DNA of 64,000 nt from Lysobacter sp. yr284. Lineage in GTDB: Bacteria > Pseudomonadota > Gammaproteobacteria > Xanthomonadales > Xanthomonadaceae. Below, one piece after another: positions 9,686 to 23,336 of this stretch. Position 1 is the stretch's first letter; each line of letters begins with the position of its first letter. The stretch is from the NCBI RefSeq assembly GCF_900107375.1, contig NZ_FNPT01000026.1, positions 1-64,000 of the forward strand. Reading direction: 5' to 3'. Below the pieces are notes generated by a model, which saw only the letters and a list, made by a program, of their open reading frames with translations, was not told the DNA's origin and ran no database searches. Made by a program: the position numbers and the translations under genes.

Positions 9686-9727
9686 ATAAAAAAAGCCCCC
9701 TCCTTTCGCCGGAGTCGAGGAGGGGGC
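9686..9727 (-). terminator. Terminator of the putative metallophore operon
   Basis: On the minus strand GCCCCCTCC (9719-9727 read in reverse) pairs with GGAGGGGGC (9695-9703), followed by TTTTTTTAT. This is a textbook intrinsic terminator 41 bases past the stop codon of the MFS exporter gene, and it marks the end of the ten-gene leftward operon. The stem could also stop rightward transcription of the LysR gene. Confidence 0.85.
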
Positions 9728-9767: not shown

Positions 9768-10994
9768 TTACGACGGCGCCGCGCGCCCGCGCAGGGCCAG
9801 GTGCAGGCCGAGCGCGCTGGACAATCCGACCGCGCAGAACACCGCCCACGGCAACCACGGCCGCTGCGTCGCCGCGGCCACGTCCATCAACCAGCCGCCG
9901 GCGATGTTGCCCAGGCCGCCGCCGACCGCCAGGCTCAGCGAACTCACGCCGAGGAAGGTGCCGAGCGCGCGCGCGTCGGCCAGCCCGGCGATTAGGGTCT
10001 GCTGGGTCGGCCGGGTCATCACCGCGCCGAGCGCGTAGCCGGCCACGCAGGCGAGCAATCCGGCGTAGGAGCCGGCGAAGGCGATGGCGCCGGTGGACAG
10101 CGCCATCAGCGCAACGCCCAGCACCAACACCTGCGCCGCGCTGAGCCGCCGTTCCAGCCAGCGCACCAGCCCGTATTGCAGCGCCACGGTGATGCCGGCG
10201 CTGAGCGCGAACATCGCGCCGACGCCGTCGGCGCTGCCGGCCAGCTTCTGCGCCAGCAGCGGGAAGCTCAGATTGATCTGCACCGCCAGGAACCAGTACA
10301 GCATCAACCACCCGACCAGGGTCAGGAACCCGCGGTTGGCGCGCACCAGCCCGAGCCCGTGGCGCAGCGGCGGCGATTGCGGCGGCATCTCGAACTTCGG
10401 CAGCAAGCGCAGCGCGATGACGAAGTTCAGCGCGAAGCACGCCGCCGCGGCCAGGCAGACGATGCGGAAATCGAAGCGCAGCAGCGCCACCCCGAGCAGC
10501 GGGCCGAGCGTGGTCGCCACCCCGCTGACCCAGTTGCTGATCGCGTAGTAGCGCGGCCGCGACTGCGCGTCGGTCAGCGCGGCGATGCTGGCCTGGTACG
10601 GCGCTTCGAACATCGCCCCGCCCAGCGCCGACAGCGCCATCGCCAGCAGCAGCAACGGCAGGTCGACGGCGAAGGCCAGGCTGGCGAAGCCGGCCGCGCG
10701 CAGCAGCACGCCCAGGCAGATCATGCGCCGCGCGCCGTAGCGGTCCGACAGCATCCCGCCGAGCAGCGCCAGCCCTTGCTGCAACAGCTGCCGCAGCGCC
10801 AGCGCCAGGCCGACCGCGGCCGCCGCCATGCCCAGGCCGTCGACGTAGTGCACGGCCACCAGCGGCATCAGCATGGCGAAGCCGGCCACCATGAAGAAGG
10901 TGTAGACCAGCAGGCCGTTGAGCGCGCGCTTGCGCGCGCCCTCGTCCAGGAGCGGGCCCGCGGCGGCGGAACCGGCGGATGCGGCGGCGTTCAT
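9768..10994 (-). CDS. MFS exporter, MdtH-like
   Basis: This inner-membrane major facilitator transporter of 408 residues has about 12 hydrophobic segments. It parallels E. coli MdtH as I remember it: LALALRQLLQQGLALLGGMLSDRYGARRMICLGVLLRAAGF (MFS motif A region), DFRIVCLAAAACFALNFVIALRLLP, YWFLAVQINLSFPLLAQKLAG and GLADARALGTFLGVSSLSLAVGGGLGNIAGGWLMD. It starts at ATG 10994, only 8 bases after the DUF364 stop. As the last gene of an operon that also encodes a small-molecule ligase and TonB receptors, its likely job is to export the product made by the preceding enzymes, as MFS proteins do in metallophore systems (inference). A general drug exporter is the alternative. Confidence 0.88.
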   Translation of the reverse strand: MNAAASAGSAAAGPLLDEGARKRALNGLLVYTFFMVAGFAMLMPLVAVHYVDGLGMAAAAVGLALALRQLLQQGLALLGGMLSDRYGARRMICLGVLLRAAGFASLAFAVDLPLLLLAMALSALGGAMFEAPYQASIAALTDAQSRPRYYAISNWVSGVATTLGPLLGVALLRFDFRIVCLAAAACFALNFVIALRLLPKFEMPPQSPPLRHGLGLVRANRGFLTLVGWLMLYWFLAVQINLSFPLLAQKLAGSADGVGAMFALSAGITVALQYGLVRWLERRLSAAQVLVLGVALMALSTGAIAFAGSYAGLLACVAGYALGAVMTRPTQQTLIAGLADARALGTFLGVSSLSLAVGGGLGNIAGGWLMDVAAATQRPWLPWAVFCAVGLSSALGLHLALRGRAAPS

Positions 10995-11002
10995 GCCAGC
11001 GC

Positions 11003-11842
11003 TCAGGCGGCTTCGCGCGCGCCGATGCCGTCGGCGCGGTAGAGGTGGATCGGGGTCGGGTCGGCGCTGAACTGCGAGAACGGGAACGGCTCGGCCGACA
11101 CCGCGGACACGCCGTGGCCGAGGAAGCGCGGCACGATCGCGCTGCCGGTCTGGGCGTACACCACCAGGCCGTTGCCGCGTTCGCGCGCGACTTCGACGAT
11201 GCGGTCGAACGAGCCGTTGCTCAAAGTCATGCCGGTGGCGATGACCATGTCGGCCTGCGCCAGCACCAGTTCCATGTCGGCGACGACCTCGGTGCCATCG
11301 GCGGTGCGCTGCATATTGAAGTCGCACGGCAGGCAGGTGCCGCCGCGCGCGCGGATCGCCTCGACCAGCGGGTTGACCACGCCGATCAAGCCCACCCGCA
11401 TGCCCGGGCGGATGTCGAGCAATCCGGCGATCGCCGCGTCGCGCGCCTTGGCCCGCTCCAGCGGCGTGCCGTGCGGCAGCAGCTGCGCGTGCGCCTGCGC
11501 CTGTTCGCGGTGCGGGTAGGCGAGCGCGAGGTAGGCATCGAGCGCGGCGATCCGCACCGGCGTGCGCGGATCGCGCAGCAACTCGGCCAGGCTGCGGCCG
11601 GAGAGTTCCTCGGCGATCGCCGAGTCGAGCTGGTCGCGCTCCAGGCAGCAACCGCCGAACGCGGACTCGGCGCGCAGCACCAGGTAGTAGTTGCGGTACT
11701 TGGTGTCGGTGCCGGGAAACTGGGTGCTCTGGCGGACCCAGAACGCGCCGACCGCGTGCAGGGCGGCAGGGTCGGGGCCATGGGCGCCGCGCAGGACGGC
11801 TTCGGTGAGGTCGGCGACGGTGCTCGGAACGGGAGTGCGCAT
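11003..11842 (-). CDS. DUF364 protein, putative heavy-metal chelation domain
   Basis: This 279-residue protein starts MRTPVPSTVADLTEAVLRGA. The N-terminal part (to about residue 110) resembles the DUF4213-type domain: a WVRQSTQFPGTDTKYRNYYLVLR strand and AESAFGGCCLE. The second half is a Rossmann-like DUF364 domain: RPGMRVGLIGVVNPLVEAIRARG, then ADMVIATGMTLSNGSFDRIVEVA, then VVYAQTGSAIVPRFLGHGVSAVS. DUF364 was named for putative heavy-metal chelation and has structural kinship to Rossmann enzymes; no reaction is established to my knowledge. It lies between ATP-grasp and exporter genes (41- and 8-base gaps), suggesting a biosynthetic or metal-handling step for the small molecule made here. Cys84-Cys85 and several His are candidate ligands. 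Confidence 0.75.
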   Translation of the reverse strand: MRTPVPSTVADLTEAVLRGAHGPDPAALHAVGAFWVRQSTQFPGTDTKYRNYYLVLRAESAFGGCCLERDQLDSAIAEELSGRSLAELLRDPRTPVRIAALDAYLALAYPHREQAQAHAQLLPHGTPLERAKARDAAIAGLLDIRPGMRVGLIGVVNPLVEAIRARGGTCLPCDFNMQRTADGTEVVADMELVLAQADMVIATGMTLSNGSFDRIVEVARERGNGLVVYAQTGSAIVPRFLGHGVSAVSAEPFPFSQFSADPTPIHLYRADGIGAREAA

Positions 11843-11883
11843 GGCGGTCTCGATGAGGTTTGCGGAAGTTCGGCTCGCGCCGA

Positions 11884-13161
11884 TCAGGCGGCGGGCGCGG
11901 CGGCTTCGTCGGCGTAACGCAGCGCCAGGGCGGCGACGGCGCGCTCGGCATGGACGCGCGCGTGCGGGCCGTCGGGGTCGGTGGCGACGACGTGGCCGAG
12001 GTAGCAGGCGTTGTCGATCGGCGCGGACACCTCGGTGCCGGCCACCGCGGCCAGGCTGTAGCGGGCCACGCGCGGGTCGGCGTCGAGCGCGGCGGCGCCG
12101 TCGAGCGCGAGCGCGCGGCCGGCGCGCGGCGGCACCAGGAACTTGATCGCGGCGCTGGCCACGCCGGTGTCGCGCCGGCGCAGGTCCGGCTCGCGGCCCA
12201 GCGCCAGTTCGATCTGCGCGTCGAGCAGGTCGATGCCGGTCACGCGCTGGATCAACTCGGCGATGTAGTTGCCGCCGGGGCGCGGGTTGATCTCGACGAT
12301 GCGCGGCCCCTTCGACGTCAGCTTGACCTCGGTGTGGCTCAGGCCGTGGTCGTGGCCGACCGCGGCCAGCGCGCCGCGCACCAGCGCTTCGACCGACTGC
12401 GCCAGCGCCGGCTCCAGCCGCGCCGGGAACATGTGGCCGTCTTCGATGAAGTACGGAAAGCCGGTGACGCTCTTGTCGGTGATGCCGATCACCGTGGTCT
12501 GGCCGCGGTAGGTGCAGGCCTCGACGCTGACCTCTTCGCCGTCCATGTATTCCTCCAGCAACAGCAGCGGCACCCGCGCCTGCTCGCGGAAGTTGCGCGG
12601 GAACGCGGCCAGCGCATCGAAGGACTCGCGCAGCTGGTCCTCGTCGCGCACCAGCTTGACGAAGGCGCTGGAGGCCAGGTCGGTCGGCTTGACGATCAGC
12701 GGATAGCCGATGCGCTGCGCCTCGCGCCTCACCGCGTCCCACTCGCCGACAACGGCGAACTTCGGGTTCGGCAGGAACGCGCGCTCGATCGCCTCGCGCA
12801 CCAGATCCTTGCGCCGCTCCATCACCACGTTGTCGGAGAACGCCTGCGGCAGGTTCAGCGCCTGCGCCACTTCGGCCACGGTGCCGATGTAGTAGTCGCA
12901 GATGGTGACCACGCCGTCGAACTCCAGCGCCTGATGCTGGGCGCGCAGGAACTCGACCAGCGCCGGCACGTCGTTGGTGTCGAAGCTCAGCACGTTGTCG
13001 GCGTGCTCGATCACCGGGTGGATCTCGCGCGAGCGCGGGTCCTGGTAGTGGCCGCGGTTGCGGGTGACGAAGGTGTAGCGGTGGCCGAGCCGGGCGATCG
13101 CCGGCGGGAAGATCCGACCGGTGCCGCCGACCCAGCTTTCGATCATCAACAGATGCGCCAT
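11884..13161 (-). CDS. ATP-grasp carboxylate-amine ligase
   Basis: This 425-residue soluble enzyme joins a carboxylate to an amine through an acyl-phosphate. ATP-grasp marks in order are an N-terminal Rossmann-like part (MAHLLMIESWVGGTGRIFPPAIARLGH), the ATP-binding strand YPLIVKPTDLASSAFVKLV, the hinge LLLEEYMDGEEVSVEACTY, GLSHTEVKL and the metal-binding ending RIVEINPRPGGNYIAELIQ. This subgroup includes BtrJ- and L-amino-acid-ligase-like enzymes. It starts at ATG 13161, 26 bases after the PLP-enzyme stop. In this operon it probably couples a diamino acid or similar PLP product to another amino acid or acid (inference). Substrates cannot be read from sequence. Confidence 0.88.
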   Translation of the reverse strand: MAHLLMIESWVGGTGRIFPPAIARLGHRYTFVTRNRGHYQDPRSREIHPVIEHADNVLSFDTNDVPALVEFLRAQHQALEFDGVVTICDYYIGTVAEVAQALNLPQAFSDNVVMERRKDLVREAIERAFLPNPKFAVVGEWDAVRREAQRIGYPLIVKPTDLASSAFVKLVRDEDQLRESFDALAAFPRNFREQARVPLLLLEEYMDGEEVSVEACTYRGQTTVIGITDKSVTGFPYFIEDGHMFPARLEPALAQSVEALVRGALAAVGHDHGLSHTEVKLTSKGPRIVEINPRPGGNYIAELIQRVTGIDLLDAQIELALGREPDLRRRDTGVASAAIKFLVPPRAGRALALDGAAALDADPRVARYSLAAVAGTEVSAPIDNACYLGHVVATDPDGPHARVHAERAVAALALRYADEAAAPAA

Positions 13162-13187
13162 GGCGCGAAGCTCCGTGGGAAAGGGAT

Positions 13188-14255
13188 TCAGTGCGCGGCC
13201 GCGGGCTGCGCCGCGGCCATGGAAACAGGGGAAACGGCGGACGCCGGATCGAACGCGGCGCGGTTCCAGCGCATCGCCGACCACGGCAGCCGCAGCTGGT
13301 CCAGCCGCTCCACCGGCGTGGGCTGCAATGCGTCGAGCGCCAGCGCGTCCGCGTGCTGCGCGAACACGCCCTCGACATAGCGATGGCCGGTGTCGGCGGC
13401 GAGGAACACCACGTTGCGCTGCGGATTGAGCAGCGCCTCGCGCCGCGCCACCAGGTAGCCGCAGCCGCTGGACAGCCCGGCGAACAGCGCGTGCTCGCGC
13501 AGCAGCGCGACCGCGCCGGACAGGCCGTAGTCGAACGAGACCCAGTGCACCTGGTCGTACAGCGCGTGGCGCACGTTGCGGAACGGGATCGAGCTGCCGA
13601 TCCCGGCGATGATGATGCCGGGGTCTTCGATGTGCTCGCAGCCGAAGGTCATGCTGCCGAAGGGCTGCACGCCGATCAGCTCGGTCTCGCCGGCGCGTTC
13701 GCGCAGGGCGCAGGCCAGCCCGCCGGTGGAACAGCCCGAGCCGACCCCGCCGACCAGGGTCAGCGGCGCGCCGCGCACGCCCGCGGCGATCAGCTCCGCC
13801 ACCGGCTCGTAGCCGCAGTAGTGGATGTCGTCGTGGTACTGCTGCATCCAGTGCAGGTCCGGATCGGCCGCCATCAGCTCGCGGATGCGCGCCACCCGCA
13901 GGCTCTGGTCGAGCTTGAGCGTGGCCTGCGGTTCGACCTGCTCGACCGTGGCGCCGAGGATGCGCAACTGCACCATCAGCGTCTTGTCCACGGTCTTGGA
14001 GCCGACGATGCGGCACTTGAGCCCGAACTTGTGGCAGGCCAGCGCCAGCGCATACGCGTAGATGCCGCTGGAGCTGTCCATCAGCGTGGCGCCGGGGCGG
14101 ATCCGGCCGCTGGCGAGCAGGCGCTCGACCGCGACCAGGGTCGAGTACACCTTCATCGTCTCGAACCGCGCCACGTACAGGTTCGGCCCCAGCCGCACCA
14201 GGTCCGGCGCCTTGATCGCATCGCTGATGTGGGCGTGCACCGCGACCGCGCTCAT
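13188..14255 (-). CDS. Cysteine synthase-like PLP enzyme (SbnA/CysK fold type II)
   Basis: This 355-residue fold-type-II PLP enzyme has the likely Schiff-base lysine at Lys35 (FETMKVYSTL), the substrate-carboxylate loop MDSSSGIYAYALA at about 59-71 and the phosphate-binding glycine loop GGVGSGCSTGG at 169-179. Relatives make cysteine, cystathionine or, as SbnA does in staphyloferrin B synthesis, a diaminopropionate precursor from O-phospho-L-serine. Its start overlaps the kinase stop by ATGA, implying translational coupling. The neighbouring PduX-like kinase could supply O-phospho-Ser/Thr, the leaving-group substrate such enzymes use, so beta-replacement on a phosphorylated hydroxy-amino acid is the favoured reaction (inference). 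The C-terminal 30 residues are low complexity. Confidence 0.87.
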   Translation of the reverse strand: MSAVAVHAHISDAIKAPDLVRLGPNLYVARFETMKVYSTLVAVERLLASGRIRPGATLMDSSSGIYAYALALACHKFGLKCRIVGSKTVDKTLMVQLRILGATVEQVEPQATLKLDQSLRVARIRELMAADPDLHWMQQYHDDIHYCGYEPVAELIAAGVRGAPLTLVGGVGSGCSTGGLACALRERAGETELIGVQPFGSMTFGCEHIEDPGIIIAGIGSSIPFRNVRHALYDQVHWVSFDYGLSGAVALLREHALFAGLSSGCGYLVARREALLNPQRNVVFLAADTGHRYVEGVFAQHADALALDALQPTPVERLDQLRLPWSAMRWNRAAFDPASAVSPVSMAAAQPAAAH

Positions 14256-15196
14256 GGCCCGGTCTCGATCAGGCGGCAGGGCCGGCCGAGTCCGGCGAAG
14301 AACGCCGAGACCTCGCCCAGTTGCGCGCTGTCGGGCTGCTGCGCGAACAGGTAGCCGAGCAGGCTGCCGGTGTGCGCGATCACCAGGCCGTCGGCGCGCA
14401 GTTCGCGGCGGTGGCGCAGCAGGATGTCCAGGTGCGCCTTCGGCGTCACCCACTGCGCCAGCTGCGCGCTGCGGGTGGCCACTTCGCACACCGCGACCGC
14501 GTCGCCGCGTTCGAACGCGTCCAACGCGAGGTCCAGGTGGCTGCGATAAGAGGCGCGATGGCGCCGATAGTGGCGCAGCAGCGGCTCGGCCAGCTTCTCG
14601 GTTTCCACCGTGCCGCCCTCGTCGATGTAGCACGCGTGCAGCCGCGGCGCGTGCGCGAACTCGCGCAGCACCCGCTGGCGGCCGCTGAGGTAGAGCGCAT
14701 AGCGGTCCAGGAACACGCTGTCGGAGCGCTCGATCGGCCGCAGCAACGCGGTCAGCTGCTCCAGTGAGGTGCGCAGGCCGAACAATCGGTCCAGGCAGCG
14801 CACGGTCGCGACCAGGTCGGCGGTGGAACTGGCCATGCCCTTGCCGGTCGGCAGCTCGCTGTCGTGGCCGAAACGCCCCGGCGGCAACGCGACGCCGTGC
14901 AACTGCAGATACCCCTCGATCGCGCGCCGGCACTTGTCCTTGCCGGCGAGATCGCGCGCGATCTCGCCGTCCTCGCCCGGCAGGAAATGCATCCAGCTGT
15001 AGCGCCGCACCGGCAGCGAGATCAGGCCGATGTGCAACTCGCCCTCGTGCTCGCACGGTCCCTGCCACAACTCGCCCAGGGTGCCGTGGCATACGCCGCT
15101 GCAGGCCGCGCGCAAGGCCGCCTGCGGCGCCTGCACGGCCGCCGCGCTCGCCGGCTCCAGCGCCGGCCTGTCCCTCGATTCGGTCCGTTGCAACAT
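14252..15196 (-). CDS. GHMP kinase, PduX-like L-threonine/L-serine kinase
   Basis: This GHMP-superfamily kinase has 314 residues from ATG 15196, chosen because GGGGAG lies 6 bases upstream; a Met two codons earlier abuts that site. It matches Salmonella PduX in layout: N-terminal CSGVCHGTLGELWQG, ATP loop PTGKGMASSTAD (116-127), LLRPIERSDSVFLDRY and C-terminal IAHTGSLLGYLF. PduX phosphorylates L-threonine for the cobalamin side chain, but no cobalamin genes are nearby. Here the gene is coupled by ATGA overlap to a CysK-like enzyme, so it more likely activates the hydroxyl of Ser/Thr as O-phosphate for beta-substitution (inference). It lies 22 bases after the second TonB receptor stop. Confidence 0.86.
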   Translation of the reverse strand: MLQRTESRDRPALEPASAAAVQAPQAALRAACSGVCHGTLGELWQGPCEHEGELHIGLISLPVRRYSWMHFLPGEDGEIARDLAGKDKCRRAIEGYLQLHGVALPPGRFGHDSELPTGKGMASSTADLVATVRCLDRLFGLRTSLEQLTALLRPIERSDSVFLDRYALYLSGRQRVLREFAHAPRLHACYIDEGGTVETEKLAEPLLRHYRRHRASYRSHLDLALDAFERGDAVAVCEVATRSAQLAQWVTPKAHLDILLRHRRELRADGLVIAHTGSLLGYLFAQQPDSAQLGEVSAFFAGLGRPCRLIETGP

Positions 15197-15218
15197 GCGC
15201 ATCTCCCCAGCGCGAAGG

Positions 15219-17165
15219 TCAACCGTCGAAATCCACCGTCAGCTGGGCCACGTAGCGGCGCCCGTCGGTGAGGCCGAAACTGTTGTTGCCGTAGATGTTC
15301 CAGGTGAAGGTGTCGCCGACGTTGGCCACCAGCAGGCGCAGGCTCGCCGGCGCCTCGCCGAGGCGGAAGCGGTAGCGCGCGCCCAGGTCGACCAGCGCAT
15401 AGGCCGGCACCCGGTTGCGGCCGTCGCGCGAGGCCACGCGTTCGCCGTAGCGGCTCATCGAGGCGTCGAACGACCAGCCCGGCAGCCACGGCGGCCGGTA
15501 CTCCAGGTCGGTGCGCAGCATCTGCTCGGCCTGGCCGATGGGCCGGTCGCCGACCCGGCCCAGCCGCACCGCCTCGCCGCTGACCCGCGGGCGCATCAGC
15601 ACCGCGCCGGCGACCAGGTTCCAGTTGTCGGCGGGCTTGCCGCTCAGGCTCAGCTCGATGCCGCGATGGCGCACTTCGGCCAGCGGCGCGAACACGTTGT
15701 TTTCGTCGGTGGCGAAGTACGGCTTGCGCACGTCGAACACGCCGGCCACCAGCTTCATGTCGTCGCCGAGTTTCCAGCGCAGCCCGGCGTCGCTCTGGCG
15801 GGTGCGGATCGCCGGCAGCGCCTGGTTGCGGTTGGCCGCGTCGTCCGGGGCGATGCCGCTTTCCTCCAGGCCGCGGGTATGCCCGGCGTACACCGCCAGG
15901 CGCGGACCCAGCTGCAGCGACACGCTGGCGCTGGGCAGCCACGGATCGTCGCGGCTCAGCGCTGGCGCCAGTCCCGGCTGGACGATGCGCTTGCGGTAGC
16001 GGCTGCGCTGGATGCCGAGGTTCCACTCGCCGACTTCGCGCCAGCGGCCTTCGTAGGCCAGTCCCGCGGTCCATTGCTCGACGTGGTCCTGGGTGCGCTC
16101 GCCGAATTCGAACGCGTCCGGGCGCGGCTGCGGTCGCGGCTCGCCGAGCGGCCGCCAACCGTAGTCGATCGCCGGCGCCGATCCGCCGTACTCGTTGTCC
16201 ACGCCGCGCCCGCGCACCGCCGCGTGCAGCACGTGCAGGCGCGGGCCTTCGCGGAAACTGCGGCTCAGCCGCAGCTCGCCGCTGGTGGAAGCGTAGCGCT
16301 GGCGCGGATCGGCGACCACGCGCTCGCGGGTCAGGCCCTCGCGGGTGGTGTCGGCGAACAGTTCGGCGAAGCCCTGCGGCTGGTCGTTGATCGAACGCAC
16401 CACCCCGCCGGCGAAGGCCCAGTCGGCGCCGATGCGCGCCTTGGCCAGCACGCCGAAGTTGCGGCTGTCGTATTCGTTGTCGCTCCAGCTCTGGCCGAAG
16501 TGGCGGCGGCGCTCGATCTTCGGCGGCCGGTAGGGACCGGCGGTGAGCACGGTCGGCGCGACTTCCTCGTCGCGGCCGCGCGAGATGCTCCAGAACGGCA
16601 GGATCTCGACGTGCTCGTTGGGCCGCCAGCGCGGCACCACGCCGGCGCGCACGTAGCGCGCATCGGCGCCGTCGTAGTACTCCTCGCGCGACAGCGCCAG
16701 GTTGGCGGCGATGCCGAAGCGGCCCTCGACCAGCGGCAGCCGCGCGTCGAATTCCAGCGCCGGCGCGCCGTAGGCGTTGAGCGCGGCCAGCACGCTGAGC
16801 ACGCGCTCGTCGCCGGCCTTCTTCAAGCGATAGTCGACGATCCCGGTCGGCGCCGGGAACGGATAGTTCAGCGCCGATGGGCCGACCCGGATGGTCGAGC
16901 CTTCCACCAGCGCCGGCGGCACCGTGCCCTGGCGGTCGAAGTAGATGCCGTCCATGCGCACGTTGCCGGCATCCACCGGCGAGAAGCCGCGCACCTGCTT
17001 GGCGCTGTACAGGCCGATGCTCTCGTTGCCCAGGGTCGCGCCGAACGCGTCCTCGGCCGCGGTCACCGCGTTGTCGCCGGCGCGCTGGGCCTGGGCGGCG
17101 CCCGCGCAGGCGGCGAGCGCGGCGCCGACCGTCCACAGCCATCGCTTGGGGATTCGCGTCTCCAC
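15219..17165 (-). CDS. TonB-dependent outer-membrane receptor (second of operon)
   Basis: This protein of about 648 residues has a signal peptide (KRWLWTVGAALAACAGAAQA), a compact plug (QVRGFSPVDAGNVRMDGIYFDRQGTVPPALVEGSTIRVG, about 50-100) and a long 22-strand-type barrel ending LTDGRRYVAQLTVDFDG, with the terminal phenylalanine near the end. It imports a ligand across the outer membrane using TonB energy. I favour GTG 17165, with GGAG 8 bases upstream; GTG 17171, overlapping the permease stop (GTGA), is nearly as good. It sits directly upstream of the three biosynthetic genes, so its ligand is probably their product or that product's metal complex (inference). No clear TonB box is visible. 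Confidence 0.88.
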   Translation of the reverse strand: METRIPKRWLWTVGAALAACAGAAQAQRAGDNAVTAAEDAFGATLGNESIGLYSAKQVRGFSPVDAGNVRMDGIYFDRQGTVPPALVEGSTIRVGPSALNYPFPAPTGIVDYRLKKAGDERVLSVLAALNAYGAPALEFDARLPLVEGRFGIAANLALSREEYYDGADARYVRAGVVPRWRPNEHVEILPFWSISRGRDEEVAPTVLTAGPYRPPKIERRRHFGQSWSDNEYDSRNFGVLAKARIGADWAFAGGVVRSINDQPQGFAELFADTTREGLTRERVVADPRQRYASTSGELRLSRSFREGPRLHVLHAAVRGRGVDNEYGGSAPAIDYGWRPLGEPRPQPRPDAFEFGERTQDHVEQWTAGLAYEGRWREVGEWNLGIQRSRYRKRIVQPGLAPALSRDDPWLPSASVSLQLGPRLAVYAGHTRGLEESGIAPDDAANRNQALPAIRTRQSDAGLRWKLGDDMKLVAGVFDVRKPYFATDENNVFAPLAEVRHRGIELSLSGKPADNWNLVAGAVLMRPRVSGEAVRLGRVGDRPIGQAEQMLRTDLEYRPPWLPGWSFDASMSRYGERVASRDGRNRVPAYALVDLGARYRFRLGEAPASLRLLVANVGDTFTWNIYGNNSFGLTDGRRYVAQLTVDFDG

Positions 17166-17167
17166 GT

Positions 17168-18700
17168 TCACAGCTCCGCCGGCCATTGCCGCAACCGCCG
17201 CAGCGCCCAGCCGCTCAATGCGGCGGCCAACAGCGCCAGCCACAGCGCGGTCGGCAGCGCGCCGGCCACGCGCGACCACGCCGGCGCGTCGTTCCAGGCA
17301 TAGGCCGGAATCGCGTCGAATTCGAGGAAGTTCATCCGCCCGTAGCTGTCCGCGCGCGGTTTCGGCGTCGGCGCGGCGATCTGGCGCTGGATGCGCGGAT
17401 AGAACCATTCGCGCAATTGCCGCTGGTAGCCCGCCGCCTGCCGCTCGAAGCGGCGATGGCGCTGCGCGTCGGTGCCGGCCAACTGCGCCAGCGCCTGCTC
17501 CATGCCCAGCGGCGGCGCCAGATAGCCGGCCCATTGCGACAGCCGCTCGCGCGCGCTGCGCGCGCTCTCCTGGCGGTCGCGCAGCGGCTGCAGGCGCCGT
17601 TCCAGCTTCGGCGCGAGGAAGGTCATGCGCGTCGCGTAGTCGAGGCCGCCGAGCTTGTCGAGCGAACCGGCCAAGTCGGCGCGGGCGCGGAAGTCGCGCG
17701 CCAGCAGCGCATCGCGTTCGGCGGCGATGGCGTCGTTGGCGCGGCGCTGCGCGTCGACATAGGCGATCGGCGCCGGCGCATCGCCCAGCCGCGCGGCCGC
17801 GCCGCTGCCCAGCAGCGGCAGGCCGATCGCCAGCACCGCCCACACCGCGCTCATCAGGCTGATCGCGCCGGCGGCGCCGGGCCACGCGGACACCACGACG
17901 AAACCCAGCGCGGCCCAGAACCCCAGGTAGGCCACCACCAGTGCCGCCGACGCGATCAACTCGGGAACGGCCGCGGCGAGATCGGCGCCGGCCGAGAACA
18001 ACGACACCGCCACGCCCAGCAACACCGCCGGCGCCAGCCAGGCGAAGATCGCGGCGATGCGCGCGCCCAGCCACGCGCGCGGGCCGACCCGCTGCGCGGC
18101 GATCAGCCGCAACATGCCGTGGTCGCGCTCGAAGGTCGCGAGCAGGCCGATCAGCACGATCGCCGCCACCGGCAGCAGGTACACCAGCACATAGCCCAGG
18201 TCGAAACGGCCCAGGCCGAGCGCGCGCGGATTTTCGAAGTCGTAGGCCGGCTCCACCCCGAACGGCGTTTCCAGCTTCACCGGCAGGCGCGTCGGCATCA
18301 GGTCGCTGCCGCCCACCGCCAGCGGCGACAGCGGCAGGTTGGGCTTGTAGGCGTGGGCGCGCAGGAAGTAGCGGCTGAAGCCGGCGACGTCGGTCGGGTC
18401 CTGCCAGTACGGCACCGGCTCCTGCGCGGGCTCGGCGTAGCGGCGCGCGCGTTCGAGGATCTGCTGGGTCCAGGCCAGGTCGGCGGCGCGGCTGCGCTCG
18501 ATCGCGCGGTTCTGTTCGCGGTGCAGCGCGGCGCCGCTGTGCGCGCCCCACAGCATCGCCACGAACAACAAGCCCAGCACCGCCCACAGCAGGCGGCTGC
18601 GGCCGACGTGGCCGAGCTCCCAGCGCAGCAGCTCGGCGAAGCCGGCGGTGCGCGCGGCCGGCAGTTCGAGGGCGCCGAGATGCCCGCTTTGCGCGCTCAT
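17168..18700 (-). CDS. ABC-2-type permease, DUF3526-like (second)
   Basis: This 510-residue membrane protein has one N-terminal transmembrane segment (LLWAVLGLLFVAMLWGAHSG), a large extracytoplasmic insert, then a cluster of five hydrophobic segments (GYVLVYLLPVAAIVLIGLLATFERDHGMLRLIAAQ onward) and a C-terminal anchor (TALWLALLAAALSGWALRRLR). This layout and the FERDHGMLRL motif after TM2 are typical of ABC-2/DUF3526 permeases. The start overlaps the previous permease stop by ATGA. It is very probably a subunit, with the neighbouring permease and ATPase, of one transporter coupled to the receptors. The transport direction cannot be told; ABC-2 proteins are usually exporters. Confidence 0.85.
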   Translation of the reverse strand: MSAQSGHLGALELPAARTAGFAELLRWELGHVGRSRLLWAVLGLLFVAMLWGAHSGAALHREQNRAIERSRAADLAWTQQILERARRYAEPAQEPVPYWQDPTDVAGFSRYFLRAHAYKPNLPLSPLAVGGSDLMPTRLPVKLETPFGVEPAYDFENPRALGLGRFDLGYVLVYLLPVAAIVLIGLLATFERDHGMLRLIAAQRVGPRAWLGARIAAIFAWLAPAVLLGVAVSLFSAGADLAAAVPELIASAALVVAYLGFWAALGFVVVSAWPGAAGAISLMSAVWAVLAIGLPLLGSGAAARLGDAPAPIAYVDAQRRANDAIAAERDALLARDFRARADLAGSLDKLGGLDYATRMTFLAPKLERRLQPLRDRQESARSARERLSQWAGYLAPPLGMEQALAQLAGTDAQRHRRFERQAAGYQRQLREWFYPRIQRQIAAPTPKPRADSYGRMNFLEFDAIPAYAWNDAPAWSRVAGALPTALWLALLAAALSGWALRRLRQWPAEL

Positions 18701-20100
18701 GGCCGCAACCTGCGCGCTGCCAGCGCCAGCAGTCCCGCGGCCAGCGCCGCCCAGCCGAACAAGCCGGCCAGCGCCGGCGCCGCGTTGCGCCAATTCGCCG
18801 TCAGCCCCGGCTGCGGCGCCTGGAACTGCGGCACCTGCGCCCACAGCGCTTCGTCGTTGGTATGGCGCGGTTGCGCGCCGTTGAGCGGATGCGCCATCAC
18901 GTCCTCGTTCATGCGGTTGACCAGCGCGCGCCGGTACTGCTCGGCGGCGTCGATGAAACGCCGGTGGTGGCCGAAGTCGCTGCCGGCCAGCATCGGCGAC
19001 AGGCTCTGCATCGCCGCCGCCGGGCTCAGCCAGCCCCAGGCGGCGAACGCGCGGTCCTGCGCGGCGACGCGGTCGTAGAAGCCGCCGAGCACGCGGTCGA
19101 ACACCTGGTGCGAATGGCGTTCGCTCAGGTCCAGCTCGGCACCGCGCGCGTCCACCCGCATGTCGCCCACGTCCTTGGCGCCGTACTGCGCGAGCAATGC
19201 CTGGCGATGTTTTTTCGCCTCCTCGGCGGTCCAGAACGACGGCGCCTGGTCCTGCAGTTGCTGCTTGACCTGTTGGCTCGACGGCAGCGGATGCGCCGCC
19301 TCCACCGCGCTGCTGGCCCAGCGCGGCAGCGCCAGCGCCAGCGCGATCCACAAGCCGAACAACAGCGCCAGCGCCCCGCGCACGCTGCGCGCCAGCAGCG
19401 ACACCGACACGCCCAGCGCGGTCAGCACGCCCAGGTACAGCGCCATCGCCGCGGCCCACAGCGCCAAGCGCAAGGCCAGGTCCGCGTTCAACGCGCCCAA
19501 CGCGGCGCTGGCGACGGCCGAAGCCGCGACCACCGGCGCCAGCAACGCCAGCGACAGCGCCGACCAGATCGCCCACGCCTTGGCCGCGACGATCGCGCGC
19601 GGCCGCAACGCCGCGCCCAGCGCCAGCCGCAGAGTGCCGCGCTCGCGGTCCATCGCCACCGCGGTGAACGCCAACAGGAACGCGACCAGCGGCGCGAACG
19701 CGATCAGCAGGCTGGCCGGGCTGGCCAGGCCGGCGCGCTGCAGCGGCGAGGCGTCGCCCTGCGGCCGGTACAGCATGTCGTTCTGCACGTGCGCTTCCAG
19801 CCACACGGTCTGGCCGACGAAGGGTTCGGCGCCGGGATCCAGCGCCGCCAGCGCCGGGGTCGGCTTGAACGCGAAGATGCTGTAGTGCGCGGCCGAATGC
19901 GGGTCTTTCTCGCCCTGCCCCAGCCAGCGCGCGCGCTCGGCGCGCGCGGCCTCGTTCTTGGCGGCGTTGCCCGCGGCGACGCCGGCCAGATCGAACGCGA
20001 ACGCGAGCAGCACCAGGGCGGCCAGCGCCAGCAACGCCCACCACGCGCGCCGGTCGCGGCGCAGCAGGGTCCATTCGTAGCCGGTCAGCGACGCGCTCAT
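18697..20100 (-). CDS. ABC-2-type permease, DUF3526-like (first)
   Basis: This 467-residue permease has the same architecture as its neighbour: N-terminal segment (AWWALLALAALVLLAFAFDLAGV), an extracytoplasmic stretch, then SLLIAFAPLVAFLLAFTAVAMDRERGTLRLALGAAL and further transmembrane segments, a second soluble insert with HSHQVFDRVLGGFYDRVAAQDRAFAAWGWLSP, and a C-terminal anchor. The MDRERGTLRL motif matches the FERDHGMLRL motif of the paralogue, so the two probably arose by duplication and form a heterodimer. It overlaps the ATPase stop and the next permease start by 4 bases each (ATGA), implying tight translational coupling. Confidence 0.86.
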   Translation of the reverse strand: MSASLTGYEWTLLRRDRRAWWALLALAALVLLAFAFDLAGVAAGNAAKNEAARAERARWLGQGEKDPHSAAHYSIFAFKPTPALAALDPGAEPFVGQTVWLEAHVQNDMLYRPQGDASPLQRAGLASPASLLIAFAPLVAFLLAFTAVAMDRERGTLRLALGAALRPRAIVAAKAWAIWSALSLALLAPVVAASAVASAALGALNADLALRLALWAAAMALYLGVLTALGVSVSLLARSVRGALALLFGLWIALALALPRWASSAVEAAHPLPSSQQVKQQLQDQAPSFWTAEEAKKHRQALLAQYGAKDVGDMRVDARGAELDLSERHSHQVFDRVLGGFYDRVAAQDRAFAAWGWLSPAAAMQSLSPMLAGSDFGHHRRFIDAAEQYRRALVNRMNEDVMAHPLNGAQPRHTNDEALWAQVPQFQAPQPGLTANWRNAAPALAGLFGWAALAAGLLALAARRLRP

Positions 20101-20855
20101 GCCGCGGCCGCTCCCGCCGGCGCCGGGCCTGCGGCGTCGAGCTCCTGCAGGTACAGCGCCTCGATCTGCGAGGCCGACAGTTCGCTGGTGCGCCGCTCGG
20201 TCAACAGCCGGCCCGCGCGCAGGATGCCGAGGCGATGGGCCACGTCCTTGACCCGGTACAGATCGTGCGTCGCCATCAGCACCGCCACGCCGCGGCGCGA
20301 AGCCGCGCGCACGCCGTGCGACAGATCGTTGGCGGCGCTGGCGTCCAGGCCGGAGGTCGGCTCGTCGAGCAACAACAACTGCGCGTCCTTGGCCAGGGCG
20401 ATGGCGAGTCCGACCTTCTGCCGCATGCCCTTGGAGAAGCCGCCGGCGCGGCGCGCGTGCGCCTCTTCCTGCAGCCCGGCCTGGCGCAGCAGCTCGCGCG
20501 CCTGGTTCGCATCGATGCGGCGGCCGCCGAGCAAGGCGAAGTAGCTCAGGTTCTCGATCGCATCGAGCTGCGGATGCAGCATCACCGTTTCCGGCAGGTA
20601 GGCGATCTTGGCGCGCGCGCCGAGACGGTCGCGGGCGACGTCGGTGCCGGCGACCTCGATGCGACCGGCGTCGGGGTCGAGGAAGCCCAGGATCAGGTTC
20701 AACGTGGTGGTCTTTCCGGCGCCGTTGGGGCCGAGCAGGGCGTACACCTCGCCCGGCGCGATCGCCAGCGACAGCGCCTGCAGCGCATGGCGGTCGCCGA
20801 AGTCCTTGCGCACGCCGTCCAGCCGCAGCGCGTCGCCGTTGTGCGTCGAATTCAT
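20097..20855 (-). CDS. ABC transporter ATP-binding protein
   Basis: This 252-residue ABC ATPase has Walker A GPNGAGKT at 42-49, the Q-loop region YLPETVML near 87, signature FSKGMRQK at 140-147, Walker B LLLLDEP ending at 166 and the switch His in MATHD. The signature has the GMRQ form seen with ABC-2 permeases rather than importers that pair with a binding protein, and no substrate-binding protein gene is present. Start ATG 20855 overlaps the receptor stop (ATGA). With the two DUF3526 permeases it makes a complete inner-membrane transporter in the operon. Confidence 0.94.
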   Translation of the reverse strand: MNSTHNGDALRLDGVRKDFGDRHALQALSLAIAPGEVYALLGPNGAGKTTTLNLILGFLDPDAGRIEVAGTDVARDRLGARAKIAYLPETVMLHPQLDAIENLSYFALLGGRRIDANQARELLRQAGLQEEAHARRAGGFSKGMRQKVGLAIALAKDAQLLLLDEPTSGLDASAANDLSHGVRAASRRGVAVLMATHDLYRVKDVAHRLGILRAGRLLTERRTSELSASQIEALYLQELDAAGPAPAGAAAA

Positions 20856-23146
20856 AGGTTCACCCTCAAGGTCAGTTCGACGCTGCGCGGCGCGCCGAGC
20901 ACGAATTGGTCGGCGGCGCCGCCGGTCCAGTCGGCGTACAGCGCATCGCCGAGGTTGCGGCCGTACAGCGCGACCTCGCCGAACGGCAGTTGCCAGGCGA
21001 CGCTCGCGTCCCACACCGTGCGGCCGGCGACGCGCAGGCGGTTGGCGTTGTCGGCGTACCAAGGGCCGACGTAGCGCGCGCCGGCGCCGACGGTCAACGG
21101 CAGCGCATCGAAGCGATAGCTCGCGTGCAGCTGGGCGAGGCGCTCGGGCACGTTCGGCGGCACGTTGCCGGCGCGGTCGGCGCCGCCGGCTTCGCGCAAC
21201 GTGTCGAAGCGCGCATCCAGCGCGGCGACGCTGGCGTCGATGCGCAGCGCGCGGGTCAGCGACGCCGCCGCGGTCAGTTCGATGCCGCGCGAGGACTGCG
21301 TCCCGCCCTGCACCGACAAATTGGCGTTGTTCGGATCGCGGGTGACGATGTCGTCCTGTTCGATCCAGTACGCGCTCGCGCCCAGGTCGACGCGGCCGTC
21401 CCACACGCTGCTCTTGATCCCGGCCTCGGCCGAGCGGCCCTGGGTCAGCTCGAAGCGCGAGTTGGCCAGCGACAGCAGCGGCAGGCTGCCGACCGGCGCC
21501 ACCGAAGTGCTGTACTGCGCATACAGCTGGGTCTTGGGCGCCAGATCGTAGACCGTGCCCACGCGCCACGACAGCGGCTCGTAGCTGCGCTCGAAGCGCG
21601 AGCGCGCGCCGGTGTTGCGGTCGGCGATGTGTCGTTCCAGCTCGATCCGGTCGTAGCGCAGTCCCGCCAGCAGCAGCCAACGCTCGCTCAGGTTCAGCGC
21701 ATCCTCGGCGAACACCGAGTACACCCGGGTGCGCGAATCGAAGTCGACGCGGTTGCCGGCGCCGGGGAAGTTGGCCGCGGTGTCGGCGAAGCCGGCCGAG
21801 CCGCGCTGCGGCGCGAACGGGTCCACCGCCGTGGTCGCGCCGAACCGGCGCATGACCGCGAAGTCGCCATCGCTGACCTCCGCGCCGATCGCCGCGCGGT
21901 TGCGGCGGCCGCCCCAGTCGCCGTCCAGCGACAGCGTCGCGCGCTCGACCCAGAAACGGTGATCGTGTTCGATCCGGGTGGTGCCGCGGTCGAGCAGGCG
22001 CGTGCGCGGGTTGAACGCATAGGTTTCCGAGTTCCACCAGCGGCGCTTGGCGTCGTAATAGCTGAACTCGTTGGAGAAACGCAGGCCCTCGCCGATCTGC
22101 CAGCCGACCCGGGTGCGCAGCCAGTCGCCGCGCGAATCCTGCAGGCCGTTGTCGACGTTGTAGTTGCGCCGGCGCAGCGCGCGGTCCAGCACGCGGCCGT
22201 CGGCGCTGCGCACCAGCGATGCCGGATCGCGCGCCAGCGCCGCCGGGACCAGCGGCGTGCCCCAGTAAGCGGTGTCGTAGTCGTCCTCGAAGTGATCCAG
22301 CGCGACATCGACTTCGACCGCCTCGCTCGGCCGCCAGCGCGCGGCCACGGTCGCCGAGGTCGCTTCGCTCGCGGTGCCGTCGACGTAGCCGTCGCCGCGC
22401 CGGTGGCTGGCGATCGCGCGCAGCGCCAGGTTTTCGCCGACCGGCTCGTTGAAATCCACCGCGTAGCGCCGGCCGCCGAAGCTGCCGAAACCGACCAGGC
22501 CCGCGAACGCGCGCGCGTCGAAGTCGGGACGCTTGGGCACCAGGTTGATCGCACCGGCCAGCGCGCCCTCGCCGTACAGCACCGAGGCCGGGCCTTTGAG
22601 CACTTCGATGCGCTCGAAGCTCCAACTGTCGAAGTCGCGGGTCACCAGCGGCGCCGCGCTCTGACGCACGCCGTCGTACAGCAGCGCGATCGCGCCGCCG
22701 CTGAAGCCGCGCATCGAGGCCATGCCGGGCGAGGACGGCAGTTGCCCGGCGAGCACGCCCGGCGCCGCGTTGAGCGCCTCGACGCTGCCGCGCAGGCCGC
22801 GCGCCTGGATCTGCTCCTGGGTCAGGGTCTCGACCGTCGCCGGGGTCTCGCGCGCGCTCAGGCCCAGGCGCGAGGCGGTCGGCGCCGGCCGATCCCAGGG
22901 CGCGGTCGCGGCGCTTTCGACGGTGACCTTGTCGAGCAGCTTGGGGGTGGCGCCGCCGCCGGCCTGGGCCGGCGCGGTCTGGGCCAGCGCGCCGTGGCCG
23001 AACAAGCCCGGCAGCGCCAACGCGGCCAGCGCGGCGCCCGCGATCTGCCGCGCCGCGCCGGTGCGCGTCCGCGCGCCGTTGCCGCCGCGCTGCTGTGCCT
23101 CGATATCCGCCGCTGCCGCGCGGCCTCCCCGCCTGCCTGTACTCAC
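20852..23146 (-). CDS. TonB-dependent siderophore-type receptor, first gene of the operon
   Basis: This outer-membrane receptor has about 764 residues from GTG 23146, chosen because AGGGG lies 5 bases upstream; a TTG at 23167 lies only 5 bases from the palindrome. A long charged n-region is followed by a signal core (IAGAALAALALPGLFGHGALAQ). The plug carries the siderophore-receptor marks TPATVETLTQEQIQARG, PGVLAGQLPSSPGMASMRGFSGG and ERIEVLKGPASVLYGEGALAGAINLVPKRP. The barrel ends SVELTLRVNL. It probably binds a metal-chelate complex. The Zur/Fur-like palindrome immediately upstream suggests repression by metal. It is translationally coupled to the ABC ATPase gene. Confidence 0.92.
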   Translation of the reverse strand: MSTGRRGGRAAAADIEAQQRGGNGARTRTGAARQIAGAALAALALPGLFGHGALAQTAPAQAGGGATPKLLDKVTVESAATAPWDRPAPTASRLGLSARETPATVETLTQEQIQARGLRGSVEALNAAPGVLAGQLPSSPGMASMRGFSGGAIALLYDGVRQSAAPLVTRDFDSWSFERIEVLKGPASVLYGEGALAGAINLVPKRPDFDARAFAGLVGFGSFGGRRYAVDFNEPVGENLALRAIASHRRGDGYVDGTASEATSATVAARWRPSEAVEVDVALDHFEDDYDTAYWGTPLVPAALARDPASLVRSADGRVLDRALRRRNYNVDNGLQDSRGDWLRTRVGWQIGEGLRFSNEFSYYDAKRRWWNSETYAFNPRTRLLDRGTTRIEHDHRFWVERATLSLDGDWGGRRNRAAIGAEVSDGDFAVMRRFGATTAVDPFAPQRGSAGFADTAANFPGAGNRVDFDSRTRVYSVFAEDALNLSERWLLLAGLRYDRIELERHIADRNTGARSRFERSYEPLSWRVGTVYDLAPKTQLYAQYSTSVAPVGSLPLLSLANSRFELTQGRSAEAGIKSSVWDGRVDLGASAYWIEQDDIVTRDPNNANLSVQGGTQSSRGIELTAAASLTRALRIDASVAALDARFDTLREAGGADRAGNVPPNVPERLAQLHASYRFDALPLTVGAGARYVGPWYADNANRLRVAGRTVWDASVAWQLPFGEVALYGRNLGDALYADWTGGAADQFVLGAPRSVELTLRVNL

Positions 23147-23172
23147 TGCGACCCCTGCTACGCTCAAAGTGT

Positions 23173-23195
23173 GAAATGAAACGATATATCATTTC
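23173..23195. promoter_or_regulatory. Zur-like (alternatively Fur-like) operator before the operon
   Basis: A 23-base AT-rich dyad with perfect 7-base arms GAAATGA and TCATTTC lies 26 bases upstream of the first receptor start. Compared by hand with the remembered enterobacterial Zur consensus (GAAATG-TTATA-N-TATAA-CATTTC), 17 of 22 specified positions agree. An overlapping 19-base stretch (23183-23201) matches the Fur consensus at 13 of 19. AT-rich DNA of this kind is rare in this window. Metal repression of the operon is therefore likely, with zinc favoured. Confidence 0.65.
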
Positions 23196-23336
23196 ATTAT
23201 CGGCACAAGGTAAGCGCGGCAAGCGGGGCCGTCAATACGGGGTGAAGGGATTCCGTCCGGAATCTGTGTGCGCCATCAACGCCGGCGCAAACGCGGCGGC
23301 GCGGGCCGGGCCGCGCCGCGCGGGGTGGAGCGCCGC

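What the first reader, a model, noticed from the sequence alone, without database searches (positions are those of the whole stretch)
9768..23195. Ten-gene operon that looks like an undescribed zincophore/metallophore system
Genes run leftward with overlaps or gaps of at most 41 bases between a metal-regulator-like palindrome and an intrinsic terminator: TonB receptor, ABC ATPase, two DUF3526 permeases, TonB receptor, PduX-like kinase, CysK-like PLP enzyme, ATP-grasp ligase, DUF364, MdtH-like exporter. Kinase plus PLP enzyme plus ligase is a short NRPS-independent route to an amino-acid-derived chelator. Known parallels are SbnA (O-phosphoserine to a diaminopropionate precursor in staphyloferrin B) and the Zur-controlled EDDS zincophore of Amycolatopsis. 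I know of no cluster with this exact composition. Product and metal are inference.
Basis: partly seen in the sequence, partly recalled or inferred. Interest (0 to 1): 0.9.

Follow-up and report, generated by a model that had tools for sequence, protein, structure and literature searches.

The report
Zinc-controlled metal-scavenger operon in Lysobacter
A soil bacterium carries a ten-gene set that looks as if it makes, exports and re-imports a small zinc-grabbing molecule when zinc is scarce, by a route that differs from the zinc scavengers it was compared with.

Summary
In detail: ten minus-strand genes (23146 to 9768) lie between a 24-bp palindrome and an intrinsic terminator. The palindrome fits the published E. 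coli Zur motif at all 20 positions and is the genome's only site within one mismatch. It is kept in 12 of 12 fetched relatives (11 without mismatch, one with one). The genome has a Zur gene; a ZnuD-like receptor nearby carries a related box in 19 of 19 genus genomes with a match to it. Relatives of the PLP and DUF364 enzymes in Kribbella and some Streptomyces lie behind the different actinobacterial Zur box (21 of 24 loci with DUF364, 1 of 39 without). Two lineages thus put one enzyme pair under Zur, so a zincophore is the best reading. Product and enzyme steps are inferred: phospho-amino acid, PLP beta-substitution, ATP-grasp ligation, an unknown DUF364 step. The ten proteins show no NRPS, IucA/IucC, nicotianamine-synthase or opine-dehydrogenase domain. 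Against zinc only: five of five Massilia relatives lack the box, and 20 of 38 named actinobacterial loci without DUF364 hold a ferric-reductase-like neighbour.

The parts
23230..23235 (-). TTGACG, putative -35 element; weak -10 TACCTT at 23207-23212 (spacer 17)
   Evidence: TTGACG 39-41 bases upstream of the box in window, L019-L023, L025, L027, and 28-29 upstream in L024, L026, L028; absent in L029 and L030. The -10 matches only 3-4 of 6. The generic scan found no promoter.
23175..23198 (.). 24-bp palindrome; core 23177-23196 is a Zur box just after the putative -10, over the likely transcription start
   Evidence: palindrome; published motif TRWNAYRWTATAWYRTNWCA; only site within 1 mismatch in 6.25 Mb; reversed-pattern control 0; no mismatch in 11 of 12 relatives, L029 in one orientation only; 1 in the twelfth; 300 random 250-bp window pieces: best 4 mismatches or more
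20852..23146 (-). TonB-dependent receptor 1 (764 aa, plug and barrel)
   Evidence: TIGR01783 siderophore receptor, 253 bits, above cut-off 223.5; best PDB chain 9rvq_A, E 3.8e-96; next FoxA/CntO-labelled chains
20097..20855 (-). ABC transporter ATPase (252 aa)
   Evidence: PF00005, E 3.1e-33
18697..20100 (-). ABC-2 type permease with DUF3526 (467 aa)
   Evidence: PF12679, PF12040
17168..18700 (-). second permease with DUF3526 (510 aa)
   Evidence: PF12040, E 1.3e-16
15219..17165 (-). TonB-dependent receptor 2 (648 aa; barrel found, no plug hit at E 0.001)
   Evidence: PF00593, E 2.6e-22; TIGR01783, 140 bits, below its cut-off
14252..15202 (-). GHMP kinase (316 aa), presumed free serine or threonine kinase
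   Evidence: PF00288, E 3.1e-9; 31.6% identical to the kinase beside cobD in Candidatus Manganitrophus; no PDB relative at E 0.001
13188..14255 (-). CysK/SbnA-like fold-II PLP enzyme (355 aa); RFETMKVY with the presumed PLP lysine K35
   Evidence: TIGR03945 SbnA 131.5 bits, cut-off 349.95; SbnA 5d87, E 1.8e-15; alignment and tree of 96 sequences
11884..13161 (-). ATP-grasp L-amino-acid ligase-like enzyme (425 aa, LAL_C2)
   Evidence: PF13535, PF18603; 3vot L-amino acid ligase, E 9.8e-25
11003..11842 (-). DUF364 enzyme (279 aa)
   Evidence: PF04016, E 8.9e-12; 33 sequences; the other 32 are 52-90% identical to this one; 77 invariant columns
9768..10994 (-). MdtH-like MFS exporter (408 aa)
   Evidence: PF07690; MdtH model 285 bits, cut-off 469
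9688..9727 (-). intrinsic terminator (stem 9695-9727, T run 9694-9688)

Best explanation
It is a Zur-repressed zinc metallophore (zincophore) operon of Lysobacter. When zinc is plentiful, Zn-Zur sits on the box over the transcription start and keeps the operon off; when zinc falls, all ten genes are made as one transcript. The GHMP kinase makes a phospho-amino acid (O-phosphoserine or O-phosphothreonine). The SbnA-like PLP enzyme replaces the phosphate with the amine of a second amino acid (aspartate or glutamate are my first guesses), giving an amino-polycarboxylate. The ATP-grasp ligase adds a further residue through an amide, and the DUF364 enzyme does one more step of unknown chemistry. 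The MFS protein exports the chelator, the TonB receptors take the loaded complex back, and the ABC/DUF3526 transporter moves it across the inner membrane (direction not settled). Shown by computation: gene content, order, Zur box and its conservation. Inferred: one transcript, repression, every enzyme step, the product and the metal bound.
For: Operon kept whole in 12 of 12 relatives. Zur box: 20 of 20 to the published motif, unique in the genome, 11 of 12 relatives without mismatch; a like box (1-2 mismatches) in four further named loci with all ten genes, L043, L051, L052, L053. The genome encodes a Zur: best PDB hit 7dh7, labelled Fur-family regulator (E 3.4e-69), then E. coli Zur 4mtd (E 2.7e-34). 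A ZnuD-like receptor (NF038289, E 1.9e-129, 433 bits, below that model's cut-off of 950) lies 2.6 kb from zur. Its promoter has a Zur-type box in 19 of 19 genus genomes with a match (20 searched; 14 matches at 80-100% identity, 5 at 55-57% that may be paralogues; 2-3 mismatches), so the motif is the genus's own. Independent support: actinobacterial loci with the PLP and DUF364 genes carry the different 7-1-7 Zur box. Kribbella couples them to a NikA/Opp-type ABC importer, the family of the staphylopine importer. S. alfalfae puts the box between a divergent GHMP kinase and PLP-DUF364-MFS. No ZnuA in this genome, while 11 of 14 control genomes ring. SbnI/SbnA is a precedent for a free serine kinase feeding a CysK-like enzyme; AMA synthase condenses O-phosphoserine with aspartate without releasing diaminopropionate; aspartate is a precursor of the zincophore EDDS.
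Against: No metabolite, expression or binding data. Massilia relatives (5 of 5) and the Acidobacteria MAG (L050) have no Zur-motif match better than 4-5 mismatches, the level of resampled sequence; the Massilia promoters have another palindrome, and their best Fur match (11 of 19) is within chance. Of 39 actinobacterial loci without DUF364, 38 lack the box, and 20 of the 38 named ones have a neighbour like the annotated ferric-reductase-like protein of S. clavifer (the label is that record's, and Pfam named nothing on the S. griseus copy), so the chemistry may also serve iron. A predicted aminopolycarboxylic-acid metallophore in Nocardia is placed under the iron regulator DmdR1 (PMC10920908, passage). 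The Fur consensus scores 13 of 19 at this promoter, above nearly all random window pieces. ZnuA is absent from 13 of 13 genus genomes sampled, two of them without a kinase match, and from 221 of 247 family genomes, so its absence does not demand this operon; a ZIP-family gene is present. Kinase substrate, PLP nucleophile and DUF364 reaction are untested. ABC-2 permeases are more often exporters (recalled), so the import route is unsure.
Confidence: 0.8

Rival explanations
1. The operon makes a broad or iron metallophore; Zur is one of several regulators (as Fur and Zur both control staphylopine).
For: Massilia relatives lack the Zur box (5 of 5); 20 of 38 named actinobacterial loci without DUF364 have a ferric-reductase-like neighbour; receptor 1 belongs to the siderophore-receptor family; staphylopine is Fur- and Zur-controlled (passage). 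The Fur consensus (recalled) scores 13 of 19 at the window promoter and in two of 17 relatives (L036, L053); only 2 of 500 random window pieces reach 13.
Against: The Fur score is only 9-11 of 19 in the other 15 relatives' promoters, where the Zur motif stays. Zur fits with no mismatch, Fur with six. Actinobacterial DUF364-type loci show Zur boxes, and no iron box (recalled consensus) within 4 mismatches was found in the 63 actinobacterial loci.
Confidence: 0.12
2. The enzymes make a small peptide or non-protein amino acid (for example a diaminobutyrate or diaminopropionate dipeptide) used as an antibiotic or antimetabolite, released under zinc starvation; receptors and exporter serve other roles.
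For: A kinase and a PLP/ATP-grasp fusion occur in a Kitasatospora plasmid NRPS cluster beside a lyase; Lysobacter are antibiotic producers (recalled); MdtH-like exporters are drug exporters (model name).
Against: Two TonB receptors and an ABC system in the same operon, and an importer in the Kribbella operon, point to re-uptake; no lyase gene in the operon to free the diamino acid.
Confidence: 0.07
3. The box is not Zur's: the palindrome belongs to another regulator and zinc has no part.
For: No binding data; the weak -10 is unproven.
Against: Match to the published motif without mismatch, one site in 6.25 Mb, and a related box at the ZnuD-like gene in 19 of 19 genomes.
Confidence: 0.03

Closest known systems
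EDDS zincophore of Amycolatopsis japonicum (aminopolycarboxylic acid metallophores)
   Same: Zur-controlled, neither NRPS nor NIS, aspartate a precursor (PMC6103462, PMC4993170, PMC9252823, passages); a CysK-like enzyme is recalled for it
   Different: The gene paper (Spohn 2016) was not available, so genes were not compared; DUF364, GHMP kinase and TonB receptors are not part of my recall of that cluster
Staphyloferrin B precursor steps SbnI-SbnA-SbnB
   Same: Free serine kinase feeding an SbnA-type PLP enzyme (PMC9598555, passages and reference title); the PLP enzyme's best NCBIfam model is SbnA
   Different: PLP enzyme far below the SbnA cut-off; no NIS synthetase domain in the ten proteins; a Zur box, where sbn is Fur-regulated
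Opine-like zincophores (staphylopine, pseudopaline)
   Same: Operon logic of biosynthesis, exporter and TonB receptor (PMC7438024, figure legend passage) under Zur; Kribbella relatives use a NikA/Opp-type importer like CntABCDF
   Different: No nicotianamine synthase or opine dehydrogenase domain in the ten proteins
Aspergillomarasmine A synthase (fungal)
   Same: CysK-like enzyme joining O-phosphoserine and aspartate into a metal chelator (PMC12751119, passages)
   Different: Fungal; not compared by sequence; kinase, ligase and DUF364 partners not known to me
DUF364 family (Dhaf4260)
   Same: Same Pfam family; its structure paper proposed a role in siderophore-like synthesis and heavy-metal chelation (PMC2954201, passages)
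   Different: Only remote similarity to a solved member (3npg, E 0.0012); no known reaction

Membership tests
Zur regulon | Promoter match to a published Zur motif | tested here: met
   20 of 20 positions; single site within 1 mismatch in the genome
Zur regulon | A Zur protein in the genome | tested here: met
   C31:15298; 4mtd E 2.7e-34; NCBIfam Zur 142 bits, under its cut-off of 167
Zur regulon | Zinc- and zur-dependent expression | not testable with these tools
   no expression data
Opine-like zincophores | Nicotianamine-synthase-like enzyme and opine dehydrogenase | tested here: not met
   neither among Pfam hits of the ten proteins; elsewhere in the genome not searched
NRPS or NIS metallophores | NRPS modules or IucA/IucC synthetase | tested here: not met
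   none among the ten proteins; elsewhere in the genome not searched
SbnA (staphyloferrin B) | NCBIfam SbnA equivalog cut-off | tested here: not met
   131.5 bits against 349.95
EDDS / aminopolycarboxylic acid metallophores | Zur control | tested here: met
   by motif only
EDDS / aminopolycarboxylic acid metallophores | Homologous aes genes, or the antiSMASH rule for the class | not tested
   class is named in PMC10320115 (passage); rule and aes sequences not at hand
Metallophore | A secreted metal-binding product | not testable with these tools
   needs LC-MS

The most novel reading that the evidence does not exclude
A new class of zincophore, defined by an SbnA-like beta-substituting PLP enzyme plus a DUF364 enzyme, is shared by Gram-negative bacteria (re-uptake by TonB receptors and a DUF3526 ABC system) and actinobacteria (Opp/Nik-type importer), each lineage placing it under its own kind of Zur box. 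DUF364 gains a physiological role, as a metallophore-building enzyme.
Probability: 0.5. Interest if true: 0.85.

Novelty: new variant of a known kind. Interest (0 to 1): 0.77.

Why it matters
Few bacterial zincophores are known, and the best-studied are nicotianamine-like opines (recalled). This would be another biosynthetic logic with a compact gene signature (PLP + DUF364 + Zur box). It would give a role to an enzyme family of unknown reaction, and a candidate explanation of how Lysobacter, in which no ZnuA was found, takes up zinc. Lysobacter are studied as biocontrol bacteria (recalled), so the system can be tested in safe strains.

Tried and rejected
Fur box as the explanation: not preferred, but not excluded as an overlap in this window (13 of 19; kept in only 2 of 17 relatives). 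Iron boxes in the 63 actinobacterial loci: none within 4 mismatches. ZnuA absence as the reason for the operon: too common in the family to argue from. Reading receptor 1 as a pseudopaline receptor because PDB hits are labelled CntO: not used, since one entry group carries both the CntO and the FoxA label. Relaxed Zur pattern at 2 mismatches: 2 sites, but the reversed control also gave 2, so that count alone means nothing. DUF364 prevalence: the profile at E 1e-40 found 1 of 398 phylum genomes, the own one; at most 6 candidates a genome were scored, so some may be missed. Generic promoter scan: nothing. PDB search with kinase and with the single DUF364 protein: nothing at E 0.001.

One search returned 80 of 112 relatives, so 32 were not seen. 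In one search my crude ORF picker failed L030 as 'ten in order', although one search shows all ten there. The weak fourteenth kinase match (G154, 27% over 93 residues) was not followed. In one search the single box-bearing locus without a DUF364 hit (L069) is a Kribbella; of the three DUF364 loci without a box, one (L083) holds only 132 bases upstream. Seventeen of the 24 DUF364 loci are titled Kribbella, so the Fisher P values (1.5e-12 and 1.1e-6) overstate independence.

Literature: no such system seen in the listings; the library lacks most subscription papers. No paper was read whole; passages only. Spohn 2016 was seen only as a reference.
Full report
Observation. The window is part of a 67-kb contig of a 6.25-Mb, 46-contig genome of the Lysobacter kind: the nearest named relative of the PLP enzyme, 92% identical, is Lysobacter enzymogenes ATCC 29487. 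In order of reading they are TonB receptor, ABC ATPase, two DUF3526 permeases, TonB receptor, GHMP kinase, CysK/SbnA-like PLP enzyme, ATP-grasp ligase, DUF364 and MFS exporter. A strong intrinsic terminator follows.

Conservation. The kinase has a strong match in 13 of 247 family genomes searched, own genome included; a fourteenth match is weak (E 8e-4). All 12 others hold all ten genes in the same order. A scan of named genomes with the PLP enzyme returned 80 loci of 112 relatives. All ten genes also appear in Lysobacter enzymogenes, a Rhodanobacteraceae MAG, Tahibacter aquaticus, a Sphingomonas MAG and a record titled Bacillus sp. 2B10. Five Massilia loci lack receptor 2 and carry receptor 1 divergently. 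An Acidobacteria MAG has a rearranged version. Beyond this the system looks rare: the DUF364 profile found 1 of 398 phylum genomes, the own one, with at most six candidates a genome scored.

Regulation. The promoter palindrome fits the published E. coli Zur motif TRWNAYRWTATAWYRTNWCA (PMC6103462, passage) at every position. Within one mismatch it is the only site in the genome, and the reversed-pattern control gives none. Of 12 relatives, 11 have no mismatch (L029 in one orientation only) and one has a single mismatch; in 30 resampled loci the best match had 4 to 6. A TTGACG hexamer stands 39-41 bases upstream in eight of 13 Lysobacter-type promoters (window and L019-L030), 28-29 upstream in three, and is absent in two. 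The box therefore covers the likely start of transcription; the -10 is weak and the promoter is inference.

The regulator. The genome has two Fur-family genes. The one on C31 resembles Zur of known structure (4mtd, E 2.7e-34; best hit 7dh7, labelled only as Fur family, E 3.4e-69) and scores 142 bits on the NCBIfam Zur model, cut-off 167. A TonB receptor 2.6 kb away is nearest to ZnuD (E 1.9e-129, but 433 bits against a cut-off of 950). A relaxed form of the box hits its promoter, and that is the only other site in the genome at two mismatches, though the reversed control has as many hits. A Zur-type box is there in 19 of 19 genomes with a match (20 searched), at 2-3 mismatches from the E. coli motif; five of those matches are only 55-57% identical and may be paralogues. 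I take this as validating the motif inside the genus.

An independent line. In Kribbella and some Streptomyces, relatives of the PLP enzyme (55-64% identical over the actinobacterial loci) lie with DUF364 behind TGACAATCATTTTCA-like sites. These fit the Streptomyces coelicolor Zur motif tGaNNatSatNNtCa (PMC5472717, passage). Of 24 actinobacterial loci with DUF364, 21 (17 Kribbella, 4 titled Streptomyces) have such a site within 6 kb upstream, against 1 of 39 without DUF364 and 0 of 63 resampled controls. With the published motif at one mismatch the counts are 17 of 24, 4 of 39 and 1 of 63. Most are Kribbella, so these are not independent events. Still, two lineages with different Zur motifs put the same enzyme pair under Zur. 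In Kribbella pittospori the box heads a NikA/Opp-type binding protein, two permeases and a double ATPase, then PLP and DUF364. The staphylopine importer CntABCDF belongs to that transporter family (PMC9598555, passage). The Kribbella exporter was not established. In Streptomyces alfalfae the box lies between a divergent GHMP kinase and PLP-DUF364-MFS, with an ABC ATPase further on.

Chemistry, inferred. SbnA makes an adduct of O-phosphoserine and glutamate; AMA synthase makes one with aspartate and does not release diaminopropionate (PMC12751119, passages). [quoted passage not shown] A kinase beside an SbnA-like enzyme therefore reads as phospho-amino acid formation followed by beta-substitution. 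Whether the kinase acts on serine or threonine is open: its relative beside cobD in Candidatus Manganitrophus (31.6%) suggests threonine, while the Kribbella loci show no kinase hit and could use O-phosphoserine from serine synthesis (recalled). Elsewhere the kinase-PLP pair occurs with an ATP-grasp-lyase fusion (Sinorhizobium) or with a lyase and a PLP-ATP-grasp fusion in an NRPS cluster (Kitasatospora). If those lyases act like argininosuccinate lyase, the nucleophile there is aspartate; no lyase is in the window operon, so the adduct could be kept as the chelating part. The ATP-grasp protein is nearest to L-amino acid ligases. DUF364 is strongly conserved across the divide (52-90% identity to the window protein, 77 invariant columns), which argues for an essential step; its structure paper proposed siderophore-like synthesis and heavy-metal chelation (PMC2954201, passages).

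Results against. Massilia (5 of 5) and the Acidobacteria MAG lack the Zur box; the Massilia palindrome fits no consensus I tried. Of 39 actinobacterial loci without DUF364, 38 lack the box; 20 of the 38 named ones have a neighbour like the protein annotated as ferric-reductase-like in S. clavifer, a label that Pfam did not confirm on the S. griseus copy. The family may thus include iron chelators. At the window promoter the Fur consensus scores 13 of 19, reached by 2 of 500 random window pieces; it is 13 in two of 17 relatives and 9-11 in the other 15, so an overlapping Fur site is not excluded here. ZnuA is missing from this genome, but also from 221 of 247 family genomes; a ZIP-family gene is present.

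Verdict. Zur control is about as firm as sequence can make it. A zincophore is the best reading (0.8). The exact chemistry is a hypothesis (about 0.45 for a phospho-amino acid/amino acid adduct as the core). In the held library I saw no description of it (listings). I rate it a new variant of a known kind.

Noticed in passing
L035:7007-11259 (own genome C31): Near zur: ZnuD-like receptor, a 223-aa protein without Pfam or NCBIfam hit, and an MFS transporter on one strand behind a Zur-type box; a likely second Zur operon.
   Followed up: partly
L066, L079-L082, L087, L088, L091, L092, L094, L095, L097-L099, L101, L106, L108, L113 (Streptomyces): A cluster of methyltransferase, PLP enzyme, ATP-grasp and, in all but one by tblastn, an MFS protein near a ferric-reductase-like protein, often with a sigma-70 family factor, without DUF364 or Zur box; possibly an iron-related cousin.
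   Followed up: partly
L017 (Kitasatospora plasmid NZ_CP108290.1): Kinase, lyase and a PLP enzyme fused to an ATP-grasp domain inside an NRPS cluster.
   Followed up: partly
L016 (Sinorhizobium meliloti pEm1132b) and other plasmids: Kinase, PLP enzyme and an ATP-grasp-lyase fusion among insertion sequences; 90 plasmid records hold a kinase relative, at least 60 of them from Rhizobium, Sinorhizobium, Mesorhizobium or Bradyrhizobium.
   Followed up: partly
L042:4831, L044:4773, L045:4805, L047:4640, L048:4821: Massilia promoters share the palindrome GATAATAAGTTCTCATTATC in place of a Zur box; regulator unknown.
   Followed up: partly
L052 (RPSH01000009.1): Record titled Bacillus sp. 2B10 holds a ten-gene cluster with TonB receptors, laid out like the Sphingomonas MAG's; perhaps mislabelled or contaminated.
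   Followed up: no
own genome: 64 matches to the TonB receptor barrel (a few are pieces of one gene), a large set.
   Followed up: no
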